Source: Protonemura montana
Taxonomy: Eukaryota; Arthropoda; Insecta; Plecoptera; Nemouridae
Direction: 5' to 3'
Assembly (NCBI GenBank): GCA_947568835.1
Contig: OX387609.1
Coordinates: 6,587,660 to 6,651,659, forward strand
DNA length: 64,000 bases
The notes under the pieces were generated by a model. That model ran no database searches and had not been told where the DNA came from. It saw only the letters and a list, made by a program, of their open reading frames with translations. A program made the position numbers and the translations under genes. Shown here in pieces: positions 889-50,800 of this stretch (positions are counted from its first letter, which is position 1; every line of letters starts with the position of its first letter).

Positions 889-984
889 CAACTAGGAGGT
901 GAGATTCTGGTTAAATGGTTTTTAAATCAATTTTTCGGTACCGTAACTTAAAGACGACGCACTTTATTTAGCTGAAGTCTGATT

Positions 985-1056
985 TGAATTGCAAACGCTT
1001 GCAATGCGCGGGGTATTTTATTTTTATTAACACTATAATCGTCTCAAAAATTGATG
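985..1056 (+). repeat. B retroposon, 5'-end fragment
   Basis: Carries the B-family 5' end (ttgcaaacgcttgcaatgcg, then ggggtattttatt, aacactataatcgtctcaaa, ttgatgc). It stops where the tRNA-like part would begin; only the inverted 5' arm remains. Confidence 0.75.
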
Positions 1057-1137
1057 CAATTTCTCAATTTCTCAAAAAGTGTTGAAAATAATAAAAAAAT
1101 AAGTACTTTGTTCCACTAAAGGTCAGCTGGCACAACT

Positions 1138-8600: not shown

Positions 8601-11600
8601 CACCAGGTCGTCAAGGAGATGCTCAACAAGTACGGCCTCGAGAAGGAGCAGGACGCGCAGCAATTCTGCTTAGTGCAGGTACGAGCTCGAAGATTTAATT
8701 TCTTACATAAATCGGTATCGTGACGAATTCTAGGTACAAGGGGCTTGGAGATCGTTTTGGTTGAGTTTGGGTTAGGATTTTGGTTGCTAGGATTCAGTTG
8801 GGTCTGACTAGACTGCTTCAAACATAGCTTTACGTTCAAAAAAATTGCATATTTCTTTCGCCCAGTATAACAGTTTTGTAACACTAATTTAAATTAAAAC
8901 ACAATTTAGTTAAGATCTCACAGTTTCTGAACTGTTCTTGGATTTTTAAATCAGCAGATCACCTCGGCTTTATATATTAATTAAGCATATTTCTAGGGCA
9001 CAGTTTTGAAACCTTTTTTTATGCTTTTATTGCACAAGGGGTCACTTAAGTGTTAGCCAATCAGCTGCTTTGGTTTTCCTATTGTTCACCAGAAGTTTGC
9101 TTAGGGTAAGAGTGTCAAAGGACTGGTGGAAAGATGGAACGAGGTTGAAAAATCTGGTTGCGATGGATGCAGGATAGGAAAGGTAGGATGTTTTGGCTTT
9201 GTTGTCGTTTTCACATAGAGTAGAAGCGTTGAGTGTGCAGGTTATAGGTAGAGGCAGTACTTTAATGTTAAACTTTCTGCGCGAAAGATATCCGCCAAAT
9301 GACTACCTTACCGACAAAAATGCAGAGTACCGGAAAACCCCGTTTAGTAGAGCCACTGTAGTATGAAATTTAATTTCGATATTTCTCGTAGGTAACTCGC
9401 TTTTGAAAATCGTTACGTGTATTTCAACGGTTGAGATAAAAATTGATGGAGATCTTTTGAGCTTGAAAAGTCTCAAAAGCGAGTAAGACTACGAGAAATA
9501 TCTAAATGAAATTTCATTCGACAGTGACTCCACTAAACTGGGTTTTTTAGTACTCTGCATTTTTGTCGGTAAAGTAGTCATTTAGCAGCCATCTTTCACT
9601 CAGAAAGTGAAACATTAACGTTCTGCCTCTACCTATAACCTGCTCACTCAACGGTAGAAGAAAGTATTCACTCGACAGTTTATACCAGCTGTTAGTGCTA
9701 TAAATCTGGTTTGGAATGTGGATTTTTGCAAACTGGGACTAAATTGCACCTTATATATTGATCAACTTGGGCATAAACTCACCTTACTTTTATATTACAT
9801 GTACTTACGTTTTATTGCGACGACATGATCCAGCACAGTGCAGTATTTTAAAATATAGATAAAAAAATTTTGTTCAGCAAATGTAAGGATGGATGTTTAA
9901 AAAACACAATAAGATTGGTCTAAATTAATATACTTTCCGGTATACTAACCCGCTTTGGGATTTTATACAAATACCCTGCGTTTTGGAAGCGTTAGCAATT
10001 TAAATAAGGTTTCCCCTTTGAGATATTGCTTATTTGTATGTGGATGATTTGTTAGAATATGTGAATGAGATTTGACTAGTTAACTCATGCAATCGCCCCC
10101 TACTTATCCAGCCAAACTCTGACGCTCGCACCTAATGGTTTGCTGTTTTGGAATCACCGATTCTCATAAGATCATGAAAGCTACGCGACATTGTGCTGGG
10201 GCATTGGATGGGTGACCATCATACACATGACCAGGTCTGTTTGTGAGAGAGGTTGGAGGGATGAAAGTTAGGACAGCAACATCATTCGGTTTGCTTATCA
10301 ACCTCGCGACAGCATGGATTTGTGGAGGAATCCTGCTGTTCGTGTTGTACCGTCCTTCGGAAGGGACCTTAAGCCGGTGGTCACCTTGGTGCTATTTAAC
10401 AGAAGTATGCTACATGCTGGTACCCTTCTAGGCTAGGCTAGGCTAAGATAGGTTCATTATCACCCACTCATTCACCAACACCATTAGACCAGTGCCACAT
10501 GGCCTGCAGTAAAAAACAGTGCATCTTTAAACCTCACGAGTCAATCTGACGCTCGTGTCTCTCTATTTCCAGGTGAACACAGCGGTGCCGGTTGAGCAAA
10601 GTGACACAATCAACGGCGGCACCAACAACCGCGAGTATATTCTGGATGACGACGAGTGTCCGCTGGCCATCCTCATGAACCACCCGTCATCGCGTGGTGA
10701 GTACCACGCCATGATACTTAAGCAGGACCGAGTATTTTGCATTTGCTGTGCGTACTTGTAGAAAGGGTGCGATAAGGCAAGCTTAGGCTTCTTAAATTCT
10801 GTGCCTAAATTTGTCTCCAGGTTTGACACATAATTAACTTCAGTTATTGCATTAGAAGTATACATTTACGACAAACTTGAGTTAAAATTTTTTTACCTTT
10901 CTTATCTTTTAACATGGTTCTGTAACAAAGTGCCACTGTTCGGGGGTGAAAAGTAGTGACGTGGATAAATTTGCAGCGTTTCTTTTTATTCTGGTGTGAT
11001 ATTTTCTACGGCATGCGTAATGGCATGCGTGGTTGTTCAGAATTTTGTTTGTACCGTAATTGGCGGTGCCAAACAGAAGGGAGTTCTAGGACGAGTTACT
11101 ACGATGTACGAATCCGGCAGATTTCTCCAGCTGTTGGGTTCATAAACTACCAGCGACAATGCCAAAATTGAAATATACTGGGTTGGGACTTTGTTGTTTA
11201 TTGTCAATTATAAAACATTTTACATGTGATGGAGACAGTCAAGCCTTAAATACGATACAGTTACTTATAGTTACACGCCGCTGGAAGTAAAACAATTTCT
11301 AGGGTTATGGAATTTTTACATTTTTAAAGGGGAGGGAGATTTCATACTGATTTCATCTCTGGCAGCCATGAAACACAGTGAATAGAACGAATCAAACTGT
11401 TCAACTGCCTGGCTTTCCAGCTTACAGGCTTTCGATTTTTTTTTACAACTTTACCTCATATCTTCACTGGACATACATTAAATGAAGTAATTGAGAAATC
11501 ATATTATTAGCCATGATTTTAGTAAGGCAGGCAAGATGATTGAAATTCCACGATTAAATAACTGATTTCCTATTCGGTCATAAACTTGAACACCAAACTC

Positions 11601-14600
11601 TTTACAGCGCTACTCCTTTATCACCCTGGTTAGTGCATCACACACCACCTAGGTAGCTCCACTAGCCGCCCATCAGTTCACCTTCACCACCCTGATAGGC
11701 AATCCACTATAAACACCCCCACCCGCTGTCCACATAACACAGGGGGTGGTATTTATCATACGGTAGTTGATGCCAGGGGCAGGTTAAACGCGAAAGTTAT
11801 GGCCCAATGACCTTTGTCAGATGTTTACGATCTGCCTGCTTTGTGGTCTTTAATCTTTATGACACGAGTTAGATTGATGGGGGCGGTCATGGATTGTTAT
11901 TCCATTTAACGATATCAAAGGGAATTTTGACTAAAGACTGATGTTTCGCTGGCGGGTAAATTAATTGTTGTTGGGTGATAAGAAGTTTACGATGAGTTTA
12001 AAATTGAATTAATTGTTTTAATTAGGTTGGGTGGGCTTCGCTTTGCTTGTATTTCATGTGAGGTAATAGGTTTTCGTTCTGTTATGTCATGGGGAGGTTT
12101 TTGCGACTGAAGAGTTTATAACTTAAAATCGAGTTTGACGACACCATCAGGTCAATTGTTTACCTTTCTAAATTAAATTCAGGTTTATCAACAACAAGCT
12201 GCTAGATGAAGATTCTGTCTTTAAAAATTACTCAATCGATCTGCCCTGTATCCGAAACGTTTTTGAAATCTACGGCTTTCTTATTAAGCTGCTTTTTTAG
12301 GATGAAAAAGTCGTTAAATTATAAAAGTACGGACTAACGCAGTGGTAGTACACGCTAAAATAACATGAGTCAAATTCCACTCCAAAAGAGTCATTTTTTC
12401 ACTCTTTCGGAGTAGAAAAGCTATCCACCACAATGTGAGTCAAATTCACTCCTTTGAAAGTAAGAACTTAAATCACTCTTTCAAAGAGTCAAATATACTG
12501 ACACTAGAAAGAGTGATTTTCACTCCTTCGTGGTATGGGAATAGTCATTTCGACGATTGAAAGGAAGTGACACTAGGAAGAGTGATTTTCACTCCATTGA
12601 GGTATGGGGATCTTCATATTAAATATTGAATATACTGGAAATAATTATTTAAAAAAACATGTTTTTTTATTGTTGAAATACAAATAATCATTATCTAGCA
12701 AAGATATTAATATTGCCGGCCACTTGGGTTGGCTTATCTAGTACCACTTGGAGGATGCAATTATTTGATCCTATTGGTGCAGGTCAGCACAAGAATATAT
12801 CATCTCAATAAATTTAATTCAGTTATTTGTTTTTTCAGATAAATATATCAGAGATTGCAGATTTCAGACAATGCTGAATATTGTTAAATAATACAATCTA
12901 GTCCATAGATGAAATCGTATTGAAATTGCAAACGCTTGCAATGCGCGGGGTATTTTATTATTATCAACACTAAAACCGTCTCAAAAATTGATGCCCAAAC
13001 GGGAACTCGAACCCCGAACTCCATCTATGTGATAGGTGAAGATCAGGGTTCGAGTCCCGGTTTGGGCATCAATTTTTTAGACGGTTATAGTGTTAATAAT
13101 ATTAAAATCTAGTCCATCTTCTCTGCAATATCCAAATTAATGAGTGAGGCATGCAATCCGTCCATTGCCAGAAGGGACTTAATATCCATGTCATAGATTT
13201 GTGCTTCAATGAAATTATAAAAACGACTTAGTTAAGATGGGTAAGTGACACTTAAGACAAAAAAGGTTTTGAATAGTGTGTCAAAGGCCTTAACTGATGA
13301 AGTCCTGACTGGAATGCAGTGCATATCAGCAATGATAAAATAACTGCAGTTTTCGCTGCCTGGTGGCCCGACGTAGACGAGAGATGGCTGCAAATTGCTC
13401 TGGATCCTCGTTTTGACGAGATGCCCGATGTCTATCCCTGTCTGTCTGTACCTGAAAGAATACATTGCAGTCAGATTAGAGACGATTTTGACGGAGATCC
13501 TTCAGGTCGTGGACTTTTAAAATGATGCGGTGTACATACCTCAACGAATTGCACCAAGCTTTTGATAGAAACAGCTGTCGGTGATCTTTCAGTTGAGGCA
13601 CTGCTGCCGTCCTCACTGTTAGGGACAAATGGAAAACAATTAGCTCTATCACTGCGCTCTCTTGCCGTCGATATTCGTTGACATTCGAACAGTCTGATTG
13701 TTTTGAATGCTTTATTATAAAAAAAAGAATCGTATAAAAACCTCATAAAAAACTTTCTTTTGACCTATATAACTCATGCATTTTCTGCATAATAACAAAT
13801 AAATGTGTGGACTGTGGTGCAAGATTGAATTATTTTGGCCGTGTTTGGTAGTGAATAGTGACGAAACTGATCATTTGGCATACATTTCATTTCAGTACAA
13901 TTAACTAATAAGCCTCTATTATGCCACTGGTTTTATAATTTTAGTAAGAAAAATAGGGCTTACCTTTGATAGCGTCTGCCAACGTCTCGGAGACTCCATT
14001 CGCCACTAAATACACACGCAAGGTCTCGATGTCAAACTTTTCAACATCACCCATGACTTCGCAGAGGAACACCGATAGTGGGTGGACTCACATACCGCAC
14101 CGCGTAACGGACAAATACGTTCACTGGAAGACACTGTCGCGCGTTGTGATTCATGAATACTCGAACGCGCTAACCCAAAACACAGAAAGTGAGAGAGTCG
14201 TCCAGAGCGAGGTTGCTGACGCCTGTATTTCCCATGTGTTTTAGTACAGATATTATCTTTGTCAACGAATTTGGTCGCATAAGCAAGAAATAATCTATCT
14301 GCATTTGTCCGCTAATTCACTTTTTTGTGAGTTATTATCGCCCTTGTTAATGATTCAACGATCTCTGCCACTCATATAAAGAGCTAAATCTGCTCACTCT
14401 TTCTAAATGAGTGGAATAACAACTCTCCAAAGAGTCAATAAAACTGAAATTCACTCATGAATGAGTCAAAAAAGACGTGACTCTTTCAAAGAGTGAACAT
14501 TTCACTCATGTTTATTTAGAGTGTAGACTCTTCGGTAAGCCTTGTCATAGCCAGTGCCAGTCCTCAGTCCTAGGTCATAGCCAGTTCTAGGTTTAGGGAG

Positions 14601-17600
14601 ATTTGTCGTTGGTTTCTCCTTTCAAAGTCAAAATGTGGAGCAAAATAATTTGTTTCCTCGCGTAAGATTAGTAGCGACAGATGCTCGGGTTGCTTGCTCA
14701 CTGACACCTGGAAAACGTCGGTGAAAAACGACTCAAAGAAGGGGCGACGAAGTGAACAAGCGAAGGACAAATGCAGGAAAACCGTATCTCGTTTCCTATT
14801 TCTAGACCAATTTAGGCGATTTCTAACAAGAATACTTCTCTGAGAAAGCATTCGACTGAAATACGAAGCAATACCGTTTGCTTTTGTATAGCTAATTAGA
14901 GTTTTCTTTCTTCTCCGTACGACTTGGATGTCGAATCCGGGACTTTCTGACAGTAAAATGATACTAGTTTAGACAGTTAGTTCTGTCGTACAATAAACTA
15001 AATTAGTGCACAAGCTAAAGCTTAACAAAGCTAAAGTTTAGTCGTTCTAAACGACCAAGCTAAAGTTCTCGAAACAAACCACAGCGCATTTGCAATTCCG
15101 TTCGATTTCATATCCCAGAAAAAAACCAAATGTTTGTCTATACCCACTAAAAAAAAAAAAAAACTGTCGAAACCCTTTCATAAATCATTATCAGCTGTAA
15201 GTGGCGATGCGATCGCGGTGTTTTTCCTCCCCGACTTCCGGTAAAGGTCACATCCGGGGTTGACAGCTAGAATGCACCCAATACCTTGATAGGTATTCGT
15301 CGTCGCGGTGGAATTCTTTTATCTGCATTTAAATTCAAATTAAATAAATACCACGGCAGCTTGTTGACAGTTTTTTTATTGCTGAACTGGAGGCAATTTT
15401 TTTCTTGCAGTGCCAGTTTTCAAGAGGCACTTGCTTACTGAAAATAACTGTGCGAGCGTGTTTTATTTAGTTGGAACCCGGGTAGTTACGACCTGTAGTT
15501 CGGTTGTTAGTCAAACCTAGACGCAGGGCAAAACGGTAAGGGGTAACTAACGATGCTTTGAATGCACGAACGGATAAACACTAATTAGAAGCATCTCGTT
15601 TATAGTGGAGGTTTAATTTTTCCACAAACCAAGGAAAAATAAGAGGAAAAACATAGAAACGTATGAAACCGAATACATTTCTAGCAGTACTTTCATGCGC
15701 CCGTAGCTCTTTTCTATACCAGTTGGTCACGGTGATTTCAGAGATGTCTGAAATTACACTAAATAGCTTTTCCTTTAATCACCTTGCTTCAGTCGGATGG
15801 CTCGCGCTGCCAATTTACCTTAGGTTTAATTAATAACTCAGTTAAACGCGTAGATAAGTTGCCAATTACCGCTACGACCTGGCCTCTAAAACGTCATCCC
15901 CCAAACCTTGCATTGCAACCAGTTTGCATTGGTCACTTATAAACTCTAGCTGCATTTTGTCTAGACCTGTATTAGTTAGAAATTAATTAATGATTTAAAT
16001 AACTAATCGACAAGAGTTCGTCTTCGCGTGGACACGGCCCAAGTTCATGCCCCTCCGTTCACCCCCCTCATTGCTATACCGCGTGATGTTCACGATCGAT
16101 ATGGCCGAGGAAAATCGTTAGCTTTCACGTTTTCCTCCTGCCGTCGTCGCATTTTCATGCATTAATGATTTGCGTGAGTTTTCCTTTTTTTCCAACGCAT
16201 TTTCTCGCTGTTAGGCCACCTCTATGGTATAACGTAACATGAAATTACAATTTAATTATCTATCGATTTCCATAATGGTCTACGTTTGTGAGTGTGTGTG
16301 TGGAGCTATTTTTTTTTCCTTTTTTTTTACGTTATGTTTGCCGTTCCATATGATGCTAGGTGGTTAGACAGCTTGTTTCAGCGCTGTGACACGTGCAACT
16401 GGGGAGATATGCGAGCCGCTCAGTAGCTTTTTGCCAGTATCTACATGGTTTTTCGCAAAAAATGAATAAAAGGGTGAAAGCTTAATTGGCAAAAAATGGA
16501 CTCGATACACAATGCCATAATATATCGGGACAACGTTTCAAAATTGAATAGATTATGCTACAAAAAAAACCCTTCACAATGTGTTTGTTAGTAACTTTTG
16601 ACGTTTTACCATAGTTTTGCAACCATTCCCTCATCGACGCAAGCCGATATACCTAATTTTAAACACCTAAATCTGTGCCTAAACCTGTTTCCGTCTCTCA
16701 TCCCTCATTCGCGTTAGTCATCTCTCTCCCCGGCGAGAAAACCTCATCGAAACTTCTATATTTTAATACAATTAGAACACACAAGCAGACGTCAACTGTA
16801 AGTTTAACAAAAACAATTAACACTGCATTTAAACTTAAAGGCTGCTCTCGAACAAACACTCAGGTGAACACATCATTAACAATTACGCTGAGTGTAATTA
16901 GGTTTTGTGCACTCCGAGTCTAACTTTGTTTGTCGACTAGAATTCTGTCCGACGTTTTACTAACAACGTGGTGGTCTCTGCTCGAGACGGTAATCCCTGG
17001 TGGACGCCATGGCAAAGCTGCGCTACATTTCAATGTGAGAGTTTAAACTGATCGTGTAACAGTTGAGGGTCATTGAGGTTATGTAGGTTTAGTCGGAGGG
17101 TCAGCGTTTTTGTTTTAATTTCTGCTCAGCGAACGACTTGACAACACGTGGTTACGGTAATTGCTACTTGATGGCGCAACCTCTACAATTAAATAATTGC
17201 TACTCAAAATATCGTTACAGGTGTATTAGTAGTTGAGGTTAGCATTAATAAAGACACATTGAGCGTAAACCGGGCTTTAAATCGAGTTATGTGCGAGAAA
17301 TAATTAAATTAAATTTCTTAACACTCGAAATACGAGCATCCCACTTTTTTTGTCCGTAAAGTAGTCATTTGTTGGCCATTTTTCGCAAAGACAGCTTATC
17401 ATTTATTTTAAATTACTATCAACACTATAACCGTCTCAAAAATTTATGCCCAAACGGGGACACGAACCCCGATCTCCACCTATCACGGGTGTTGCTATAA
17501 ACCATTGAGCTAATTGGACACTGGCTTTTTGAGACGATGCTAGTGTATTTGATGAGAATGACAGTTCTCCAGTCCCCGTTTGGGGATCAATTTTTGAAAC

Positions 17601-20600
17601 GGTTATAGTGTTGACAATAATAAAATACCCCGCGCATTGCAAGCTTTTGCAACTTAAATAAGATTTTATCCGAATACAGCTTATCATTAGCGCTAAGGAC
17701 AATCCCCAGGATTAAAGACACATTTTTAAACCGAAGATCTGTTGTACAGCTCAATTTTTGCCAAAGTCAACACTCAACACGCTTGCCTATCGGCTGTCGG
17801 CTCTCTGTGCGGGAAGTTGGTTTACCAACGTAGATTTTGCCGCTGTTCCAAGTCAACATTGCTCTTGTAAATACTGCGCTAAGCCCGAAAAGTTAACGCA
17901 ACAATGTTTCAACAAGACGCAGTTCTCGAGGACTTTATTTTCCGTAAATGTTCTGCCGGCAGCAAGACTTTTGCTACCTAGAGGGATTGAAGTCGATACT
18001 CTTCGCTTGTGACTTTTTAAGTAGTTTTAGTTGAAACTTGACTCTGGTGGGGATAGTGCTCTGTACTTAAGAAGGATTGAGACGGTCTTTCGGTGGCCTA
18101 CAGATTATGGTAGTGCACACCATCTCTTTTACACAGCAATCGAACGTATTCCGCAAAAAGCGGATTAGCCGTTTCCCTCAAGACCGAAGAAAAAAATCAC
18201 TAAAATATTTATGTTGTAAGTCTAGCCTCACGGGACACTGCAAATTCCCTAAACCAAATCAAAAAAAAAAAAACTCTTCTGAACGCACAAAAAAAAAAAA
18301 AAAAAACTGCGATCTAGAACAAGAACTCTAGTGGATCCACCCACCCACCGTCCCGGCGCCTACCCCAATCCCAACGCCGTCGCCGCTCGTGCCGACGCTC
18401 GGCGTCGCGCATTCGACGCCCCAACGTCGCGACGCCAACATTGCAATGCACCTCCGCTAGACTCCATGTGCTCCTTGTGTTTACCGTCGCGACGTCGTAC
18501 CTTGATCTTGAATCATTGATGAAGTTCACTCGAGCTTGCTAGAGGGGGCGTGCGTGAGTGTGTGTGATATTTTGTGTGCGTGATTTGGAAAACTGCACCG
18601 ACATGGACTGGGGATTGAGACGTATGTATTAGTTTAATTTTGTGTCGTTTGTTAAAGTTAAATGGTTGGTAGAATTGATTGATTTGTGTTTTGTTTAAAA
18701 AGCATGAGTTTCCTATGCAACACTGAGTTGGCACGTGTGGTGCTGTTGTAGTAAACGCTTTCGCTTTTCGTTAACTTTTCTTTATTGCGTGGAAAGCCTC
18801 TTCCTATTCAGTAAGTTTTCTTGATAGAGACTTAATTCTTCTGACCGTAGAGAAGAAAATAGAGAAAGTAGGAAAGATATAGCGAGAAGGATTAGTTTCT
18901 GTAATGTCTCTAAGAGTTGAGCTACAACATTCTTTATATATACAGAAAGTAAAGCATCACAACACAACGAAAACGTCATTATTACTGCGCTAGCGATACA
19001 GGTCTACTCTTTGTGATTCTTGGTGCTCCAACAATAAAGTTTCCGCTGTACGGTTATTTTCATCCACGTAGATGCTATCGTTCACTGACATGCCTACACG
19101 GCCGAGCCCTTTTCATACGTTTTATCCATCAAATCCATAACCATGTCAAATAGATTCTTTTGTAGCTCTCTGTCGAATCAGAAGCAATGTTGACACAACC
19201 CGTGAGCTCGTTTTGTACCAACTGGGAAGTATAAAAGCAGGTTCCTCGAACTACGCGGTGCTCGAGATGTAAATGAGTGTCCTCGGCAACCGTCTCGTTC
19301 TCAAAGGTCACCCCATTCCATCGCGTAGGGGGATGCGAAACTAGGCGACCACAAACACACGAGGCTGTTTCGCTCTGTCAAAGGAATACCTTCAGACACT
19401 TCTCACGATATTTGATTACTCCGGCTTAAGGTCAAAGCGAGTTCACATACTAAACAATGTTAGGAGCGATGAACTAAATTACTAATATCGACTTCGCTAA
19501 ATAGCTTTGAATCTAGGTTCGATTGAATGCTGGCCCCACTGTTGGTTGTTGTAGATAACCTCACTAAATTCGACAGTAATAAAGCGTACCTATACACTGT
19601 TAAACACACGTAGATTTTGCTCGATGTAAGAGATAAAAACTAGTGCAGTCTGTCTTTTTTGTTCCCTTACCAACCGAGCTGAAATACGGTTACACATACC
19701 CTGTTACGGTACTAAGGTTCAGAATCGCAAAGTCTAAATAAAAATATATCTGCCAGTAACAACTCATCTCCATGGTTACAGCCAAGCAGATGCTTCAATT
19801 CTCATCTGAACCGCAAGAAATCTTTTTACCTAATGTCATTTCTTAACTCCTAGATAAAGTAGCAGTTAAGTTATTGCCATGGCAACAAGCAATCACAGAC
19901 AGTGAAAGTCAGCTGTTTCTGAGTGTTAAGAGCTTAAATCGGAGTTAAAAAAAATTGTAATACCGGGCCTAGCAGGTTGACACGGGTGTATTGAGTGCTT
20001 GTGGTCAACCCCCTGCAAAAGACGTCGCACGATGTGTGGAAACATTCCTATTAGGAATATAGAATACAATCGGTATTGCTATCCTCAACGTTGCTAGCAT
20101 TGATAAAGCATTTTACTCAGTAAAGGAGTATTGTGAAGAGCTGTAAAATTAATATATAATTGTTGTATTCTTTTATGTATGTTTCGCTGTATATATATGT
20201 AAGCATTGTATCTATTGTATATATTGATTGTATTCTGAATTGTAGAACTGACAATTTCCAATACTCTGGAACGGGTCAAAGGAAAATAAATAAATAAATA
20301 AATAAATAAATAAATTGAGTTTAAAGGTATAGCCAGAGGGCCAGCGTTATTGATAAGCTTTCTGCTGTGAAATCGAGCCGGCAACACGTGGTAAATGTAG
20401 CGTGGCCATCCAAAAGCGCTTGCGGCCGTCCTTTTTAACGAATGTATACAATGAATTAACACGACTTAAAATATCGATACTAAGTGTAGCAATCGTTGAG
20501 GTTAGCATTAATAAAGATTATTAGAGCGTAAACCGAGCTTGAATGCGAGTAAAAACGAATCGAAATGTGTAAACTATCGAAACGACGGTGATCCCACCGG

Positions 20601-23800: not shown

Positions 23801-26800
23801 GCCTCTTCTAACAATTCCGTTCTCTTCTGTGACAGAATTATTATCCAGCAGAGTTCATAATTTGTTAATCAAAGTCGATCCGAAACTTCGGCGAGTCGCG
23901 TTCTTGACGGTTCAATCTTAGAATAGCTGGAGAGAATGGTCCATTCGTAACAGTGCGGAACGAGAGTAAATGAAGTCTTTGATCCTTTCGTAAAACATTA
24001 GACGAACTAGAAGAACTAGACTGGCGCAGAAAGGGCGCATTCGTTTAATATTACAACAGTTTTGTTTGTGGCCTTTTTGGGCGAACGGCGTAGACATGTT
24101 CGATTCTTTTCTGTGTGTTTTTATCTGATCTATGTCAACATGACTGGCATTATAGGCATTGCTTGATGTCACGTATACAGAAATAGAAATGTATTAATTA
24201 GTCAAATTACTTTCTCGTCGAAAACGAGTGGGTATGTGTTACGTTTAAAAATTTCTATACCCAATTTCGACAAAAGTTGTATTTGAGGTGCGGTCAGATG
24301 TATTTCAAAATAAATCGGCAGAATTGGGATAATAATATTATTTTAAATAAGATAATAGCGAAATTCTTAAACAAAATCTCACATTTCTCATCTTGATTTT
24401 GTATGATTTTGGTTTCAGTAGCTCTAATAGCAAAAATGCGTTTCGAAAAACTTTGAAATTGGTGGTTATAATAAAACATAGACCCTAGACTGACAGTTTT
24501 TTCGATTCTAAGACAAAAAGGGTGTTAAGACAAATGCCACGGCGACTTTGAATCACGTGCAGAGAAATTCAGATGTTTCTCTATAGAAACCCAAATCAGA
24601 GTCAAATAACAGTCTGTTACTGGACACGAGTACCAACTGCATAAAACTACCTACACACGTTAATAATACCCAACAGAACTTTTGTTTCCAAACATGACGA
24701 GCACCAATAGGGTCTTACAACCAAATTGAAACCTCGTCCACTTTTCGACTGCGGCGACAAAACATGTTTCCAATTACGCGATTACGATCAGCTAAATGAT
24801 TCAACGAAGCCTCGAAACACACGCGTCACTCAAGTCTTCAGTGCTGCTCAGACGTCGTCGGGACCCACACGGTATACTCGCCCTTCCTTGCTTATCGATA
24901 GCACACCATTAGCTGGTCATAGTGAGTCCATTCGTTGCCTGAGAGTGGGCGACTCGGCGAGTCGTCGCCGCCATCTCTATACCAGTTCAACAAATACACA
25001 GTTCAGTTGTGTATTTACACTCATCACAGAAACATATCAGTTCAATCTCGCGCTTACAAGCTTGTAACTCGATGGATTATGAAAAAAATCAAGAATTTGT
25101 GGAATATAAATGTTTGCTAAAACGATTTTTTTTTTAGTTTTTGAGAGCACCTTTTAGTGATGGGCTAGCAGCCCTAGAAAGGACTTGGTTTTCCGAAGTT
25201 TCTGCAAAGCTCACTCCGCCATTTTCAGGGTGAGACTATATATCTATATGTATATATAATTGTTTCATGTACATTTTGTTGTAAAAACTGTGATTTATCC
25301 GGTTTTAAATGTTATTTATTTGTGGTAAAATCGTATAGGAACTAGCGTTGAAAAGCTAGTTTGGCGTTTGTATATTGGATGGGTGACCATCATACACATG
25401 ACCAGTTCTGTTCGGGAGAGAGGTTGGAGGGATGCAAGTTAAGCAACATTGCGCTGGGTCAGGTATTGGATGGGTGGCCATCATACACATGACCAGTTCT
25501 GTTCGGGAAAAAGGTTAGAGGGTTGAAATTTAGTACAGCAACTTCACTCGCCTTGCTTATCAACCTCTCGACAGCATGGATTTGTGGAGGAAACCTGCTG
25601 TTCGCGTTGTACCGTCCATCGGAAGGGACGTTAAGCCGGTGGTCCCCTTGGTGCTCTTCGACAGGAGTAGGCTACGTGCCGGCACCGGGTTTCCCCTCCT
25701 TCCTTCTAAGCTAGGTTAGGTTCATCATCATCATCATCATCCACTCATTCACCGACGCCATAAGATAAGTGCCACATGGCCAGATGTCAAAACAGTGCGT
25801 CGTTAAACACCACAAATCAATATATAAATTGCAATTGTAAGTAGTACGTAACTCTCTCGCCGTATGCAGCGCTCTGCACTAGTGCTTTTTTCCATGGTTT
25901 TCTTTCTATGCTAGTGCAGGGTAGTTATTTTGAAGATTTCTCAGCGAGCCGTTGAGTGGCTACTCGAATGAAGCATCCAGTAGGCAGCTTGCATGTGCAC
26001 TTAGAATACACTGCATTAGGTGGCCATGTCTGGAAGTGATTGTTGGCAGAACAACGAGTTTTCATGGTCTAATTGTGCCGGGTTTATGGAGCAAAGGTTA
26101 CGAGGTGGCTTAAGTTCGTACGTTTTTCAAGAAGTCTCTCTAAAAATAAGATTTTATTTTGCAAAAATCATGAATAAAAACTGTTTATATGGTATAGTCA
26201 GAGAGACAGTGACAATGTTGAACTGTCTTCCCGAAAAATGGCCGCCAAATGACTACTTGACCGATAAAAATTGAGGTTTCTTCGAGGCGGAACCACCGGG
26301 TGTTTATCTCGCAGATTACTCGCATTTGAGACTGGTTTACGGTCAACTAATTTCTGTATTAATGCTAACCTCAACGATTGATAAACGTGTATCGACATTT
26401 TGAAATTTAATTATTTAATTGTAAAGTTTTGTTAAAAAAAAAAAATACCGATGCAAGCGCCCTCGGGTGGCCACTTCCATTCGGGTGGCCACAAGCTAGA
26501 AAAGAAAATCGTCCGGGCAATGGCCGGAATCAGCAATCGCCAATCCTGCAGAGAGTTGTTTAGACAGCAGAAAATTTTAACATTAAGTGGCCTATACATC
26601 CTAGCAGTGGCTCTTTTTGTCTAGGACAACCAGAGCTTGTTTGAGGCACAATCCATGAGCATAATACAAGAGGCTCTAAAAAAAATAAACCAAACTGCCC
26701 ACCGTCTCAAGTCCTCGGACCAACTTCCCCTGAACCGGGGTACGGAAGTTTTTAATAGACTCCCACCTTCGATCACTTCCTGCGACTCTCGGAACAAGTT

Positions 26801-29800
26801 TAAGAGAGCGGTGAAAGATTTCCTTCTTACAAATGTGTTCTATAATCTCGACGAGTTTATGGACTGATACTCAATTTTAATTTGCGACAACGTTACCCAT
26901 TAGATATAATGTACTCTCACAGATGTAAATAAATAAATTACCACAAGTTGCCGGCTCGTTTGCTCAGCAGAAAGTTTACTATAACCGAAGCCGATACCTA
27001 TACACTCAATAGTTGTAAAATAAAGTCAATGCAGGCAAAATGTGTTGTAGAACCTATTATATATGGCAAGCTAATTGATCAAAACTTAATGTGGACGACG
27101 CTCATCTTCAATCAAAATAACAGTTTGAAGTGGTCAACTCGTAGACAGATTCAAAAACGAAAGTGTGTAGAAAATTTTCCCGCTTAGAGGAGAACGATAT
27201 TTGGAATCATTTTATTTTAAATTTAAATGTTCTAGAGATTCTGCAACTCCTATGCTACTACAACTCCTACTCCAACTCCAACTGCAACTCCAACTCCTAC
27301 TGCAACTCCTATGCTACTCCAACTCCAACTGCAACTCCAACTCCTACTGCAACTCCTATGCTACTACAACTCCTACTGCAACTCCAACTCCAACTGCAAC
27401 TCCAACTCCAACTGCAACTCCAACTCCTACTGCAACTCCTATGCTACTACAACTCCTACTGCAACTCCAACTCCAACTGCAACTCCTACTCCAACTGCAA
27501 CTCCTATGCTACTTCAACTCCTACTGCAACTCCAACTCCAACTACAACTCCTACTACAACTCCTACTGCAACTCCAACTGCAACTACAACTCCAACTACA
27601 ACTCCTACTGCAACTCCAACTGCAACTCCAACTCCTATGCAACTCCTACTCCAACTGCAACTCCTATGCTACTACAACTCCTACTGCAACTCCAACTCCA
27701 ACTACAACTCCTACTACAACTCCTACTGCAACTCCAACTGCAACTGCAACTGCAACTCCAACTCCTACTGCAACTCCAACTCCAACTGCAACTGCAACTC
27801 CAACTCCTATGCAACTCCTACTCCAACTGCAACTCCTATGCTACTACAACTCCTACTGCAACTCCAACTCCAACTACAACTCCTACTACAACTCCTACTG
27901 CAACTCCAACTGCAACTGCAACTCCAACTCCTACTGCAACTCCAACTCCAACTGCAACTGCAACTGCAACTCCTATCAGCCATGTTCTTTAAGTCTCCCC
28001 AGTAATGTTTCATGATCTTTGTATTTATTCAACCAAATTGTACGGGCTCCGAGTACCAAGGACCCGTTCAATCATTCATAAACGTGGGATCGTAGTGAGT
28101 GGGACATCCTTCAATAGCACGCCGTAATTAGCAAGGGGGAGGAAAAACAAAACGAGACACTTTTCCGGGAAACGGTTTCTAGGAAGGTGGGGCCACGTCG
28201 TTGTGCCCAAGGTTTTTAATGACACGCCAAATTGCGCTTTCAATTACGCGATCAAAGTTTTAAAAATGTGCCAACTAGTGTTTAAAGTTTATAAAAATTG
28301 TTAACAAATGTTAGAACATCGACTTACGGTCGATTTTGCTAATGCCGTTTGAAAATTTTTGTAAATTTCTTTCAGGGGTGATTTTAAACGACGCAATAAT
28401 TTGCTTTGAAAAACAGATTTGTTGATGATTGCAAACCATAACATTTCGAAAATTCGTGAAGAACTAGAAAAAAGTAGATTTTAACAATGTGTTTGCTACG
28501 AAAAGGAGTATTTGGTGACTTGGAAATAGTATACATGGGCTAACAACTCTTACAGATGCAAATATTGTTATAACCTACAACGTCTTTTCTTGATCATCAT
28601 CGAATTTCAATTCAAATTTGCATTTTTTTTCCAAACGTCCGCACTGAAGCATTTCTCAATATTGGCTGAACGGGAAAATCAAATTTACTTTTCAACTTCC
28701 CTTTAACGCCAATTCAGCAAAATGTGCACGATTAGAACTACACGTTGAGTTTTTACCTTTCAGAATAGGTTTATATTTGTGTTCTTTGATAATTTATTCG
28801 CTTTTTTTTATAGATGTTAATTTAAACAGAGAGATAAAATGAAACTATTTTACTAGGCTTTCTTAATATATACACTATGTGAAAATTCTATCCATGTTTG
28901 TCTTATTTTCCATCGGATTTCCGAATAATTTCGTAATTGCTGATATTTTTCCCCCATGAAAACATCTACCCCCAATTCTCCACCAATCTTTCACCACAAG
29001 CTAATACCCCCCCCCCCCCCCCCCCCCCCCACCGATGCATGATAACGAACCTAATCTGTTTTAATGTGGAACCTATGTTCCCGCGGGGCACCCAACCCCA
29101 CCCTCTTCGGATTCAACGTTCACCGATAACAAGGCCAGATAGCAAGTGATTAAATTACCCTCCCATACCCCGTTGTGCGATCACGCGAAGGTCATCGTAG
29201 GGCTAAACTGTCGTCCCTCAGGGGGGTAGACCCTCTCTGTACGGCATTACCTACCCTAGTTTCGATGGTGTGGGTGGTGAGACTTACGCTGGACTCGCGC
29301 ATGTACGTAGTATTTTTAATTTGTAATTACTCGCGGGTGATGTAGGTGGCTGATTGGACGTGACGTAGATTCGTTGGCGTTTTGCAGGCAATTAGTTGAT
29401 TTTTTTTTCTATTTTTATTTTAACTTGCTCATCTGCTTGGTCGCGGATGAAACTGGTCAAACATTGTCGGCTGTACATTAAGATTAAAAAGCGTCAAACC
29501 GAATGTATGTACTTATGTACCGCGTTTAATTTAGAAAAAGCCATGAACGTCATCAGGGTCTGAATCCATGAAACAGAGTCTTACGCTAACCTCCAGGGGT
29601 TGGATCCACAAAGGTTAACTTCGGAGTTAATAGATGATCTGCAATGGAACATAGCCGATCTTTTCAGAATTTCAGACCGAATGGTTTGCCGTGTTGGAAA
29701 CACCGGTTCTCATGAGATCACCGAAGTTAGCAACACTGTGCTAAATCAGGTATTGGACCTCTTGATAGCATGGATTTGTGGAGGAATCCTGTTGATCTCT

Positions 29801-32800: not shown

Positions 32801-35800
32801 AGAAGAGAGCGACTTCTTCGCCATGATGGGTCTGTGGTCGCTCAAGAATGCACGAAGAAGAGGTCAGAAGTGCGAGATCTTACTAGGTTTGAAACTATAC
32901 TTTAATTATCTATTTATATGATCCCTTTTTTTTAAACACACCCCCGTTTTTTTTTTTTGTATCGACTTGATTTTTTTCCTGCGACGCATTGTAACGGAAT
33001 TAATAAATTAGTAGGGGGCTGCTTGTGTGTTTTGTTATTGATTGAGGTCTTGGATTGTTCAAACAAAAGGGGACAGTAAAAGTGTAAATCGAGGAATGGA
33101 AACTTGCCGATAGTTAAAAATGAAGCTACGATTCTTGAGGTGCCATAGGGGGTCAAGACAGTTAGCATTTTGATTGTTTTCCACGGTTACCACCGTGGAA
33201 ATGTATTTGAGTGCATTCTTTAGTATTTTGGCTTGACTTTAGAGTCATTTTTCTCTTTGCAACTTCAAATTTTGGCACAAAATTGTTTTTGATATTCATT
33301 CTTCGTTCTCATGAATTGATTCTTAACCAAACTAACGAATATGAGGAGGCTTAGACTGAGAGATGATTGCAAAATATGAAGTGCAGACCTTGGAAATAAG
33401 AAATAAGTGGGGGAAAACGCATTTATGAACCTTCTTATAATAATAATATTAATATCCCCCTATATATGGTTTGCAAATAGCCCCAATGTCCAAATACCGC
33501 TGCATCGCTCTAAGGTCTAATTCATTTCAAATGCGATATGACAGCAAATGCAGCCCGAAAACCTAGCGAAACCTGAAGCTCAATCCCAAAAACTATGTCA
33601 ATTTGGTTTAGAATTCACCATCGAAGAGTTTTGTCATCGACTAGCAAGCGAGTCGATTGAGAAGTTATCTCTCTGTGTGTGTCGACATGTGTTTTCCTCG
33701 ATGGGTGCTCGCTATCAGTCCGCCTTATCGGGCACCCATTAGTGGAGGGTGTCCCATAGCTGACTTGAAGCGGTTGATGACGTCTGTTAAGTCAGTCGAG
33801 TGTCCAACGCCTCCCGTGAGAACTTGATGGTACAATGCGGTTTGTAAATGGGTTTGAATGGCGCTAAGAGGGCTTGGGAATTCATGGTAAGTCTATTTAG
33901 AATGATACGTTGATATGGCAGGGAAAAATAGGTAGGTATCTCAAAATGTTTGGGAAAGTCCAAAAATTTCTCAAAGTTTCGTGACATACTAGTTACCATA
34001 CCAAAGGCGAAAACTCGACTGATTTGCTATCTCGTAGGAGAAACAAATTTAACATTTTCTTTAAGGGTTTGGGGTGATTGGTTTGATTGGATTAAGAAAG
34101 ACATCTTGTTTGGTATTGAACAAAAATATATTTAATTTAATTCTTAGTGAAGTTCTAAATAATTTATTAATGTTTCATTGTATATAAGTTAAAAGGGATC
34201 AGGGGTGAAAACTTTGCTGACTTGACAACCCCTTTCTTAAGAACCAACAAAGCCCTTGAGCTTACACTATCTTGAAATATGAATCAAGCTGGATCAAAAG
34301 AACGTTATCTACAAGCTAGAGTGGTTGGTCTCTAAAGACATAAACACATGTGTTTTGAAAAACATGTTACTTTCGAAATTGGTTTGGAAATTACTCAAAG
34401 TTTGCATGGATTCGATATTTTTGTAGGTTTTTTAATAATAATGGTCACAACTTTGTTTATTTCGGCCACTTCCAGCCACTTGAAATGATTTTGTACCTAT
34501 TTTTCCTTTTCATTTCGCCCGCACCTCATTTGCTTTCGCTTCCCATCAGCATTTCATCTTGGCTGCAGATACCTGAAAATGCTTTCACGCCTTTATTCAA
34601 TTCCGAGGCATAAACTAAATTCCCTCACCCGTGGTAAAAATGTCCGATGCACCGCTCTCACCGCTGGAATCACATCGCCTACGAAGTAAACTCGCCCATT
34701 CGACACAAAAGACCACGCGATACGATTTTCATTCCGTCTACGTCGACTATAATAGAAATTTTCCCGAATTGGGAAAGCCATTTCCCGATATAGAATCAGT
34801 ATCTCAACTCTATCAATGTTAAATTAGGTATCCGGTTCCTCTTATAGCCTCGGGTTGTGTGTCGTTGGATTAACTTAGCTCTTGAGAAGGAGAAGGAGAA
34901 AATCTCTTGTCCTCTAGGTACTTCAGTGTATTGGAAAGGTCAGTCGATGCAATAAAAAGAGACAAGAAAAGTCCACAGGAAACAAGGTTTTACAATTTGA
35001 TTCTGAATGTCACGTGGACTTAATGCGATCGTCAATTGTTAAAACACTCGTGTTCATCTTTTGAACCTATAGTCTGTTTCGAAGTAAGATGCATGCACTT
35101 AAGATACTGTTGAGATAGGACGTACGAGCTGGCCGATAATTCTAGTCTATACTCGTTTGTCCGAACTCAAACATTACTTTTACAATAAGTTGCTGTCAAT
35201 CACTAATCAACATGGAAATCTTGTAAGTTCTAGGTTTATCACTAGTATTTGGAAAAAATGTATGTTTTTTTTCTCCCAGTTACGATTACCGGAGAGTCCC
35301 ACGTGAACCACTAACCCCAAACAAACCATGTTACTAAATTTCATACGCCTTTTCTCTTTAACTGAATTACCTTGATTCTGGAGATTGCTAGACTACGGTT
35401 CTGCAAACAGTTGCACACAATAAGTTGCTGTCAATCACTAATCAACATGGAAATCTTGTAAGTTCTAGGTTTATCACTAGTATTTGGAAAAAATGTATGT
35501 TTTTTTTCTCCCAGTTACGATTACCGGAGAGTCCCACGTGAACCACTAACCCCAAACAAACCATGTTACTAAATTTCATACGCCTTTTCTCTTTAACTGA
35601 ATTACCTTGATTCTGGAGATTGCTAGACTACGGTTCTGCAAACTTGGTCTGCTAACCAATTCAACAGTAGCTAGCAGATTTTTTTTGAGCTTGCATAGCG
35701 ATCTTGTTGAAATGGTAAACATTTTAAAAATTCACTACCAATATTGTAGATGCCAATACTTAAAGAAACAGCAGTTTTTAAATACTGTTCATACTTTTAT

Positions 35801-47800: not shown

Positions 47801-50800
47801 AGTTTTACGAATTTGTGTTTTACCGCATCTTATTGATCGTTCATTCTTAGTACAATACTGTTGCGTTTGTACTGACGTTCTGGTTTTTTTCACACGTTTG
47901 TTGTGCCGTTTTGAATTGTGTTTCTTACACGATAACACGTTTCCTGTCTTACGTCACGTTCATTTATCGTTTGTCACGTTGCATTGTTGATTCACTGTGC
48001 AAAATTTTCCCAACGCTACAACAAGCTTATCAATTAGCAAATTAGGTTTATTTTAAATCCGTTTTGTCCTGTATTGTTTCTTGCAATACCTGATTTGGGG
48101 TCGTTTTTCATGTTTTACAACTCGCATGTAGATGGCCAGCACCCTATTCGACGAGTGTGGTGAATTTTGCTCACAATTGTGCTTTGTAGGCAGTTGTCCA
48201 TGCCAATAACATATCAATATCTCCTAAGAGCTAGTTAAGGCTCAAGACTGTGTAGTTAAAACAAAAGTTCTTCTTTATCGAGTTTTTTTTTTAATTAATT
48301 TCACAGTATTTGACAGTCAATAATCAGCACATTCACCTCTAACCATCTCGTGAGCTACCGGTGAAAACAAAAACCGACCCCAAATCAACGTTGCTGCACA
48401 TGCCCCGCCCCTCACACTTTTTTCCCCACCCTCCCACGGTCGTGCAGCCAATCGCAGCGTGGCGATGACTCGACCGCGACCCCCGCACGGCAAAGCCCCG
48501 GCCCGTCGGCCCAGAACTACGAGACAACTTTCGACGTCGACGGCAACGTGGAGACTGTGTCGACCTCGTCGCTAGGCAACAAGGACGACGCGCGCAGTCA
48601 GAGGTCGATCGCAAGCAGCAATGGAAACAGGTCGGTATTGGCCCCGCCCCTTTGGCAGGCTGGAGGATCGAAATTTTGTCGATCTTAACTAATCGGAGAG
48701 AGTGACAGCCTTGTTGCAGCAAAATCGTTGAATTGCAATGTTTTGCTAGGCTCGTTCCTCTGTGAGGAAACAGAATTGAGCTCTTGTTATTATACTTCTC
48801 TCCCATGGCCTCTCGAACGCTTTGCTATGTGCACAGTTTGTTTTGCTTGTTTTTCAGTCGTGAGTTTATTTTTTGTTTCGTTTTTGCTTGTTTTTTGTTT
48901 TTATGATATGGATAGCTGGTAGCTTCAGTAGAAGTTGTTCAAAATACAAGAAACAATATAATTTTCTGCATGTGTACTTAATATATTTAAAAACCATCTG
49001 CACTATTGTACAGAATGACTTATTCATAGCTTGAAAGTGGTGGCCTGTATTAAAAAAAAAAAAATTGCCAGGATTTAAAAAATACATAAAGCAACATTTC
49101 ATATGTTTGCTTTGACGCTTTTGCCTCTCTTCACTTATATTTGTACAATACAAATGGTGGCTCTAAAACCACACTCATCCAGAAACTCCGCTGATTCCAT
49201 CAAACCCTAACCGTATATCCCTGCCGCTCTCGCACAGACTGTCGTCAAACTACGAGCGCTACCCGCGCGGCACGGACCCGATCCTGCCCGCCGTGCTCGA
49301 GTTCCGCGAGGAGACTGAAGAAGCTTTCATCCACGCCGTGGTCACGGACCTAGACCCGGCGGCACCTTCGTTTAAGCTCGCGCCCGCCTACTGTCTCTAC
49401 CTTGTGGCTCGGTATCGAGCCTCGACGCACTACAGGCCCGAGCTGACGCCCACCGAACGAGCTCATAGGCTCACTGGGCTTATGGCCAGGGTGGCTGCCA
49501 TCATACACAATGTCATACAGGTACGTTGTGGTGATAAGCCTTTGAGTTGTGTTTCTGCTTTCGTAGACGATAATATAGGGAATATTGATTACAAAAAATA
49601 CGGCAGATTTTGGGGCAAAGGGATCTAAGGGGTTTCCTGTTTCAATTTTATGGGAGAAAACATAAATTTTCTTTCAATTTTAGTGAGTAACTTGGAATTA
49701 TTATTCTGTGTGATGCTTTGTAATATGCACAGATTATGTTTGGCTGAATAATTTCAACTGGGTTTAGTAAATTAGTTAAATTATTTTGTATTGCAGCTAT
49801 TTCCTCGTTTTTAGGATAAGAACTACCAAAAAAAGTCCTGACACTCAGCCTTTTAACAACATTTCTCTAAACGAGTTAATTGCCAAGATAGCTGTGTGTC
49901 GGCCATCCTGAAAAAAAACCTTGTTTAGTTCAAAGCTAGGTTACCTTAGCTCAACCCAACAATCAACAACAAAATTTAGTGAATTGATTCCCTGGAGGGT
50001 TTTATCACAGAAATGGTATTTGCTTCATGCCAGTGACGCTATCACTATCTTTTTTGAAATAAAATTCTGTGCCATCATCCTCATCATCGCCCACTCGATC
50101 ACCAAAGCCATTAGACCAGCGCCTTAGAGCCCGTTGTGAAAACAGTGCGTCGTTAAACACCACTAATCAGTGCTATTCATTGAATTGATTAAAGTGGTAG
50201 TTAGCGAGAAAAATTAGTTGTTTGTTACTGAGCATTCAAAAACCCAGTTGTAAATAGTTTTTGCAATGCCCCCTGATCGCTGCCCGCAGGAACGCTACCG
50301 CGACGGCAAGCTGCTTGCGTTCTGGACAGCGAACGCCTCCGAACTGCTTCACTTCCTGAAGTGCGACCGCCACGTGTCGGCATTCACGTTGGATGCGCAG
50401 GACATCCTGGCCGAATGCGTGGAGGTGGCATTCAGAGGTCTTGTGGCGTGTTTGCGTGCCGATCTCGCAGTTGCCATGCCGCGGTTCCTGGCGGCGGCGG
50501 CCGCAGGGGAACACCCGGACGATGCCGAGTCGACTGGATCGGTGAGTTGGGGAGGAATTGTCTTGATTTTATTTGTCGGGAACACTGATAACCTCCCAAA
50601 ATTGGTGTCCAAATGGGGAGTCAAACCCAATTCTCGAACCGCGAACTACGAACCTCGGGCAACACCTGCGAAAGTGGAGATCGGGAATCGAGTACCCATT
50701 TGGTCATCAATTTTGGGAAGTTTCAAGTGTACCTTATTATCAAAAATTATTTTACTATCATTGGGTTCAATGTTTTGGACTTGAAGTAGTTAAAAAAACT

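What the first reader, a model, noticed from the sequence alone, without database searches (positions are those of the whole stretch)
17404..17675. tRNA-bearing retroposon with its own 3' end inverted at its 5' end
Two copies (17404-17675 and 12907-13105) carry a tRNA-like pol III promoter, yet both ends are inverted copies of each other over about 55 bp, including the T-arm and the acceptor sequence gtttgggc. They have 12- and 13-bp target duplications, which fits retroposition and not cut-and-paste. Ordinary SINEs lack terminal inverted repeats and ordinary MITEs lack a tRNA promoter and long variable duplications. A fixed 5' inversion (twin-priming-like) that became the master copy would explain it. 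The RNA would close into a hairpin joining its two ends. A third, diverged palindrome (50583-50738) suggests more than one subfamily.
Basis: partly seen in the sequence, partly recalled or inferred. Interest (0 to 1): 0.72.

Follow-up and report, generated by a model that had tools for sequence, protein, structure and literature searches.

The report
SINE-like retroposon inserted from both sides
A short tRNA-bearing jumping sequence in an animal genome carries an inverted arm in about two thirds of the insertions sampled, apparently because both cut DNA ends start copying its RNA, whereas such inversions are almost never seen in the human Alu element.

Summary
In detail: both window copies are palindromic, carry a tRNA-like stretch and lie between 12- and 13-bp target duplications. 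The family is abundant (2509 places for one 39-nt tag, up to 3 mismatches) and probably recently active.

I reconstructed a 331-nt unit (H-S-tRNA-X-T). Of 41 insertions taken in list order, 27 carry an inverted arm. Inside breakpoints differ from copy to copy (82 distinct ordered pairs of 87), while the outer ends mostly fall at two RNA sites, the X-end (AATAATAAAA) and the T-end (CATCCTAA). So the inversion is remade at insertion, as in twin or dual priming, and not inherited from a master copy.

Published 5' inversion rates are about 18-31% for L1 and about 0.02% for Alu; here about 66% (exact interval 49-80%).

The target is symmetric (A at -3,-2 on one side; T at +2,+3 on the other), as if both strands were nicked at one motif, which could explain the rate. 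Arms of one insertion disagree at two variable sites in 18%: more than mutation predicts, less than two random RNAs would. No partner LINE was found. New variant of a known kind.

The parts
17391..17403 (.). target duplication of copy 1, left (ACAGCTTATCATT)
   Evidence: repeat D1
17404..17571 (-). copy 1, X-ended arm: unit 282 back to 117 (X, tRNA, part of S)
17446..17520 (-). tRNA-like module R
   Evidence: ARAGORN
17526..17546 (-). short inverted match to X inside S (older, apparently fixed inversion)
   Evidence: pair I2, 21 nt, 86% complementary to 17422-17442
17568..17675 (+). copy 1, T-ended arm: from unit 223 to the T-end (the match runs on to 17680, into the target duplication)
17676..17688 (.). 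target duplication of copy 1, right
12895..12906 (.). target duplication of copy 2, left (AATCTAGTCCAT)
12908..13028 (-). copy 2, T-ended arm: unit 205-325
13031..13105 (+). copy 2, X-ended arm: from unit 204 to the X-end (the match runs on to 13108)
13106..13117 (.). target duplication of copy 2, right
962..1057 (-). T-ended fragment without an inverted arm, from unit 239, 90% identity
9969..10013 (+). T fragment, unit 278-322, 87% identity
50566..50744 (.). old palindromic relative, unit 281-212 inverted and 193-280 forward, about 76% identity, both ends at the X-end

Best explanation
A non-autonomous, tRNA-bearing (SINE-like) retroposon with a 331-nt unit (H-S-R(tRNA)-X-T) whose usual way in is two-sided target-primed reverse transcription. 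The two target strands are nicked about 13 bp apart, apparently at the same short motif (TT^NTT; the target pattern is shown, the enzyme is inferred). Each nick leaves a primer. One starts copying at the T-end of the RNA (CATCCTAA), the other at the A-rich X-end (AATAATAAAA), 49 nt upstream in the unit. The two cDNAs meet and are joined at a variable place, giving an inverted arm and a forward arm inside one target duplication (architecture shown, chemistry inferred). The T-arm of the tRNA is a frequent stopping point. The breakpoint is remade each time, so inversion is a product of insertion and not a trait of a master copy. That the RNA holds more than one unit, or that two RNA molecules serve in some insertions, is inferred from arm and unit differences and is not settled.
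For: Inverted arm in 15 of 23 T-anchored and 13 of 20 S-anchored list-order places, 27 of 41 distinct insertions. Outer ends: of 123 parsed elements (query-biased) 75 T/X twins, 3 T/T, 0 X/X, 7 T/other, 2 X/other; all 13 twins of the S-anchored sample are T/X (12 plus L132). The whole twin lies inside one duplication: 48 of 74 T/X twins have one with score 9 or more, null 0.8%. Breakpoints: 82 distinct ordered pairs of 87; 32 of 87 joints overlap by 1-5 nt. No shared ancestry among same-breakpoint copies. Symmetric target: A at -3 in 33 of 48 and -2 in 36 of 48; T at +2 in 27 of 49 and +3 in 32 of 49; background 0.293. Arm discordance 8 of 45 (site 231) and 13 of 71 (site 269), mutation expectation 2.4%, independent draw 48-49%.
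Against: Only 5 of 23 simple T-ended and 2 of 8 simple X-ended copies have a clear duplication, so simple copies may have other histories and the rate may be misjudged either way. No helper LINE identified. X has TTTTT just after the tRNA, a likely pol III stop (own reading), so how the full RNA is made is unclear. The old copy at 50566-50744 looks X/X, and 3 of 123 are T/T, so mixed ends are not strict. Both arms usually contain the same RNA stretch, which simple twin priming on one single-unit RNA does not predict. The bases next to the nicks (first and last of the duplication, and -1, +1) are affected by how the duplication was found; only -3, -2, +2, +3 are clean.
Confidence: 0.77

Rival explanations
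1. A fixed 5' inversion became the master copy, and the palindromic RNA itself is retroposed; differing breakpoints are loop deletions made when reverse transcriptase skips across the hairpin.
For: Five groups of copies share a breakpoint, for example L005, L011 and L012. S carries an older inversion that is part of the consensus.
Against: 19 distinct breakpoints in 25 copies of one layout, and same-breakpoint copies share 0-1 derived letters. Copies with X on the left and T on the right and the reverse, short and long arms, and uninverted copies of the same unit all occur. In the list-order samples the arms have many different lengths.
Confidence: 0.07
2. Snap-back: a single cDNA folds back on itself and copies its own sequence, so the inverted arm is a copy of the forward arm.
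For: Copy 2 is almost a perfect palindrome with 3 nt between its arms.
Against: Most twins have arms with different inner ends; the left arm starts at X and lacks T; arms differ at the two variable sites in 18% against 2.4% expected by mutation.
Confidence: 0.04
3. About the template: a circular or ribozyme-made multimeric RNA (retrozyme-like), moved by a Penelope-like element, rather than a linear SINE RNA moved by a LINE.
For: Constant T-TA-H head-to-tail joint, 99-100% identity over 152-155 nt in 40 of 41 rows; copies of up to about 1.6 units (L071, L046).
Against: No ribozyme family at E up to 1 in L030 and L046. Units in one insertion differ at site 269 in 6 of 17 comparisons, unlike a single-unit circle. 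Only 10 GIY-YIG matches at E up to 0.1, one over the cut-off.
Confidence: 0.1
4. A MITE (DNA transposon) that captured a tRNA.
For: Palindromic copies with inverted arms.
Against: Duplications vary from 9 to 18 bp; the two termini are different sequences; breakpoints vary inside; 36 of 123 parsed elements have one arm only.
Confidence: 0.02

Closest known systems
tRNA-derived SINEs
   Same: Short, non-coding, tRNA-like module, dispersed with target duplications of variable length.
   Different: The unit closes on itself (T-TA-H), the tRNA lies inside and not at the 5' end, two-thirds of sampled insertions are inverted, and no LINE with the same tail was found.
Twin priming of human L1 (PMC12016303 and PMC2912911; passages and one section seen)
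   Same: Two cDNAs in opposite orientation inside one target duplication; joints with short overlaps; template stretch sometimes present in both cDNAs.
   Different: 18.4% (germline) and 21.9% (somatic) or 30.9% of L1 insertions, against 27 of 41 here; start sites here are two fixed places; germline Alu 0.02% and 1 of 5554.
Dual priming, proposed for primate L1 (PMC2837659; passages seen)
   Same: Two RNAs, one at each nick, would give inverted arms from different templates, as 18% arm disagreement might mean.
   Different: Proposed there as an untested alternative for 39 loci with 5' poly(T); here the arms are long and carry variable sites that can test it.
Metazoan retrozymes (PMC7229834; passages seen)
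   Same: About 300-bp unit, tandem register, duplications longer than 4 bp.
   Different: No hammerhead or other ribozyme match; tRNA module; inverted arms.

Membership tests
tRNA-derived SINE | tRNA-like pol III promoter module | tested here: met
   ARAGORN, and in 4 of 5 related loci; Rfam tRNA model in L030 and L046. Promoter activity not tested.
tRNA-derived SINE | tRNA at the 5' end of the element, body and tail behind it | tested here: not met
   Best copies with intact tRNA are preceded by S and often H.
tRNA-derived SINE | target duplications of variable length | tested here: met
   9-18 bp, median 13, in 58 of 119 elements
tRNA-derived SINE | 3' tail shared with a helper LINE | tested here: inconclusive
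   None of 16 stretches next to LINE-like reverse transcriptases (15 downstream, one upstream by mistake) ends in T; they were picked from 150 scored of 1781 candidate places.
Insertion by twin priming | two opposite cDNAs of one element inside one target duplication, breakpoint variable | tested here: met
Insertion by twin priming | both cDNAs from one RNA molecule | tested here: inconclusive
   18% arm discordance at two sites, between the expectations for one RNA and for two random RNAs
Metazoan retrozyme | hammerhead ribozyme | tested here: not met
   no such match at E up to 1 in L030 and L046
Penelope-like element partner | many GIY-YIG endonuclease copies in the genome | tested here: not met
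   10 matches at E up to 0.1, one over the cut-off; a diverged nuclease could escape this model
MITE | target duplication of one fixed length and equal inverted ends | tested here: not met

The most novel reading that the evidence does not exclude
Two-sided priming is the normal, built-in way in for this retroposon: an endonuclease that cuts both strands at the same motif (TT^NTT, about 13 bp apart) makes two equal primers, and the RNA offers two start sites 49 nt apart, so that an inversion is the standard product. A share of insertions joins cDNAs of two different RNAs or units, which would be direct evidence for dual priming.
Probability: 0.48. Interest if true: 0.74.

Novelty: new variant of a known kind. 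Interest (0 to 1): 0.62.

Why it matters
[quoted passage not shown] A family with a two-thirds inverted share in the lists sampled, two start sites and a symmetric target gives a natural data set for that question: does the sequence at the second nick set the rate, and is one RNA used or two? It also warns that repeat finders may file such a family as a MITE, since each copy is a palindrome with its own arm lengths.

Tried and rejected
Fixed inverted master: rejected on breakpoint diversity and lack of shared letters. A joined tRNA+X+T query was meant to test for an ordinary SINE that starts at the tRNA; its 40 scored places matched at 96-99%, but the copies did not begin at the tRNA, which is how S and H were found. 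The duplication lengths printed are meaningless, since the wrong left boundary and orientation were used. Snap-back, MITE, retrozyme and Penelope readings: see rivals. Folding of copy 1 (z -8.92 and -8.93) only restates the palindrome. A within-genome control on the 5S-like repeat was dropped: its 91-bp spaced copies and the partial query would hide inversions. No control on the inversion rate of other retroelements of this genome was made. Paper searches that bear on SINEs with inverted ends or frequent inversion (listings seen only) showed no such family to me; the library holds open-licence papers only, so this does not show that none is in print.

Counting notes. The T-anchored sample is the first 23 of 648 exact places (20 new loci plus L039, L049, L064, already held); the S-anchored sample the first 20 of 2509 (exact matches are listed first). 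Both lie almost wholly on one contig (C1), and exact matches favour young copies. L064 and L106 are in both, hence 41. L132 (81% identity) fell below the filter and was counted as a T/X twin. L039 counts as not inverted, although its duplication lies 12 nt further out with what looks like a remnant of X' between; L131 may hold a 10-nt X' arm and counts as not inverted. Twins of the T-anchored sample other than T/X: L100 and L105 (T/other), L108 (X/other, a 19-nt arm). One search prints 25 of 25 T/X twins, a number that I had typed in; the right one is 24 (12 + 13 - 1 shared). One search leaves out elements under 45 nt, under 86% identity or within 20 bases of a locus end, and one copy of a local duplication (L009). 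The 123 elements, the arm comparison and the breakpoint counts lean on query-selected loci. I first wrote the motif as TT^STTT; the base after the nick is not clean, so it is given here as TT^NTT, and I lowered two odds slightly for that.
Full report
Setting. The window is G000:C12:6587660-6651659 of a 258-Mb, 34-contig assembly with no relatives on hand and no file. COX1 from contig C34 reads openly under the invertebrate mitochondrial code; that it looks arthropod is my own reading of the protein, and the species is unknown.

Family. An alignment of 28 copies close to copy 1 and of 30 copies found with a tRNA+X+T query gave a unit of 329 nt plus TA: H (1-104, origin unknown), S (105-166), R (tRNA, 167-241), X (242-280, ends AATAATAAAA) and T (281-329, with a TTGCAA inverted pair and the end CATCCTAA). 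T is often followed by TA and H: 40 of the 41 rows listed match this joint at 99-100% over 152-155 nt, dispersed over the contigs (40 of 2194 candidates scored). Such identity suggests recent activity. The S tag occurs 2509 times with up to 3 mismatches in 39 nt, the backward control 0 times; 31 nt of T occur 648 times exactly.

Architecture. Insertions were parsed against the tandem unit. Pieces that touch the target begin mostly at the X-end or the T-end. Of 123 parsed elements 75 are two-armed T/X, 3 T/T, 0 X/X, 7 T/other, 2 X/other; 25 are simple T-ended, 9 simple X-ended, 2 simple other (a query-biased set). Two list-order samples were not chosen for inversion: 15 of 23 T-anchored and 13 of 20 S-anchored places are two-armed, 27 of 41 distinct insertions, exact interval 0.49-0.80. 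All 13 of the S-anchored twins are T/X, while its seven simple copies end at T (3), X (3) or elsewhere (1); if each side were drawn evenly, 13 of 13 mixed would have a chance of about 1 in 8000 (own arithmetic). The T-anchored sample cannot show X/X.

One event, made anew. Target duplications with score 9 or more flank 58 of 119 elements (0.8% of mismatched pairs): 48 of 74 T/X twins, 5 of 23 simple T-ended, 2 of 8 simple X-ended; length 9-18, median 13. Inner breakpoints form 82 distinct ordered pairs among 87; 32 joints overlap by 1-5 nt, 5 by more, 4 are flush, 46 have gaps. Among 25 copies with copy 1's layout 19 breakpoint pairs are distinct, and copies with the same breakpoint share 0-1 derived letters, as other pairs do (mean 0.33). 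So the inverted copies look like end products and not masters.

Where copying stops. In the biased set 35 of 79 T-ended arms stop at unit 220-239, the T-arm of the tRNA; in the T-anchored sample 5 of 23 (L091, L093, L096, L097, L105). A folded or modified tRNA that blocks reverse transcriptase would explain it; that is inference, and the numbering of A58 (unit 226) is recalled.

Target. With the T side on the right, the bases before the duplication are A at -3 in 33 of 48 and at -2 in 36 of 48, and those after it T at +2 in 27 of 49 and +3 in 32 of 49, against 0.293. These positions lie outside the matched duplication. Positions -1 and +1 and the ends of the duplication are shaped by the way the match was found; the duplications themselves tend to begin with A and end with T. 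On the nicked strands both sides read TT^NTT. The two nicks thus seem to follow one rule, and both may leave ...TT-3' ends that can pair with AA at the T-end or with the A-run of the X-end. This symmetry is my proposed reason for the high rate.

Template. If one RNA gave both arms they should differ only by later mutation (2.4% at a two-letter site); two random RNAs would differ in 48-49%. Observed 8 of 45 (site 231) and 13 of 71 (site 269), both 18%. Consecutive units on one strand differ at site 269 in 6 of 17 comparisons. So more than one unit or RNA seems to be involved at least sometimes; multimeric RNA and dual priming remain open. In L034, L035, L042, L049 and L054 one arm ends a little downstream of the other's start site, as twin priming on one long RNA predicts; in others, such as L084, L086 and L087, the arms overlap.

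Comparison. Published 5' inversion rates: L1 18.4% germline and 21.9% somatic, Alu 0.02%, SVA 0% (PMC12016303, passages); L1 639 of 2068, Alu 1 of 5554, SVA 4 of 477 (PMC2912911, section 8). Dual priming was proposed and left untested in PMC2837659 (passages). Metazoan retrozymes (PMC7229834, passages) share unit size and tandem register, but no ribozyme was found here. The helper is unknown: 16 stretches beside LINE-like reverse transcriptases do not end in T (L124 was cut upstream by mistake, and L122 holds a separate array copy of the family), and GIY-YIG matches are few.

Verdict. Observation confirmed; interpretation partly supported: the arm comes from two-sided priming, but anew at each insertion and not from an inverted master. 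A new variant of a known kind, with a mechanism that can be tested.

Noticed in passing
window 10134-10281, 25373-25532, 29680-29756; L030 268-387; L046 676-795; L043 1-874: A second repeat family, 5S rRNA-like by Rfam in L030 and L046, whose copies in several loci are spaced by 91 bp in tandem.
   Followed up: partly
L057 1602-1757 and 1866-2702; also L051, L055, L062: Some copies of the studied family hold tandem arrays of a 52-nt piece of the tRNA module (3.0 and 16.1 units in the two opposite arms of L057), perhaps by reverse-transcriptase slippage between similar A-box and T-loop letters.
   Followed up: partly
L057 1-976: A 26-bp satellite, 37.5 units, directly upstream of a family copy.
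   Followed up: no
window 35182-35643: A 235-bp tandem duplication, 2.0 copies at 100% match.
   Followed up: no
window 50254-50560: An open stretch just before the old palindrome that looks to me like part of an afadin-type protein (own reading of the translation, not searched).
   Followed up: no
G000:C4:5760925-5762262 and G000:C34:3504-4841: COX1 appears on the small contig C34 and, with the same score, on the large contig C4, with a further partial copy at C4:5776811-5777755: a recent nuclear copy or an assembly join.
   Followed up: no
G000:C15:2035591-2035867 and 2039399-2039675: Two copies of the family with the same matches and the same flanks 3.8 kb apart, so a local duplication and not two insertions.
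   Followed up: partly
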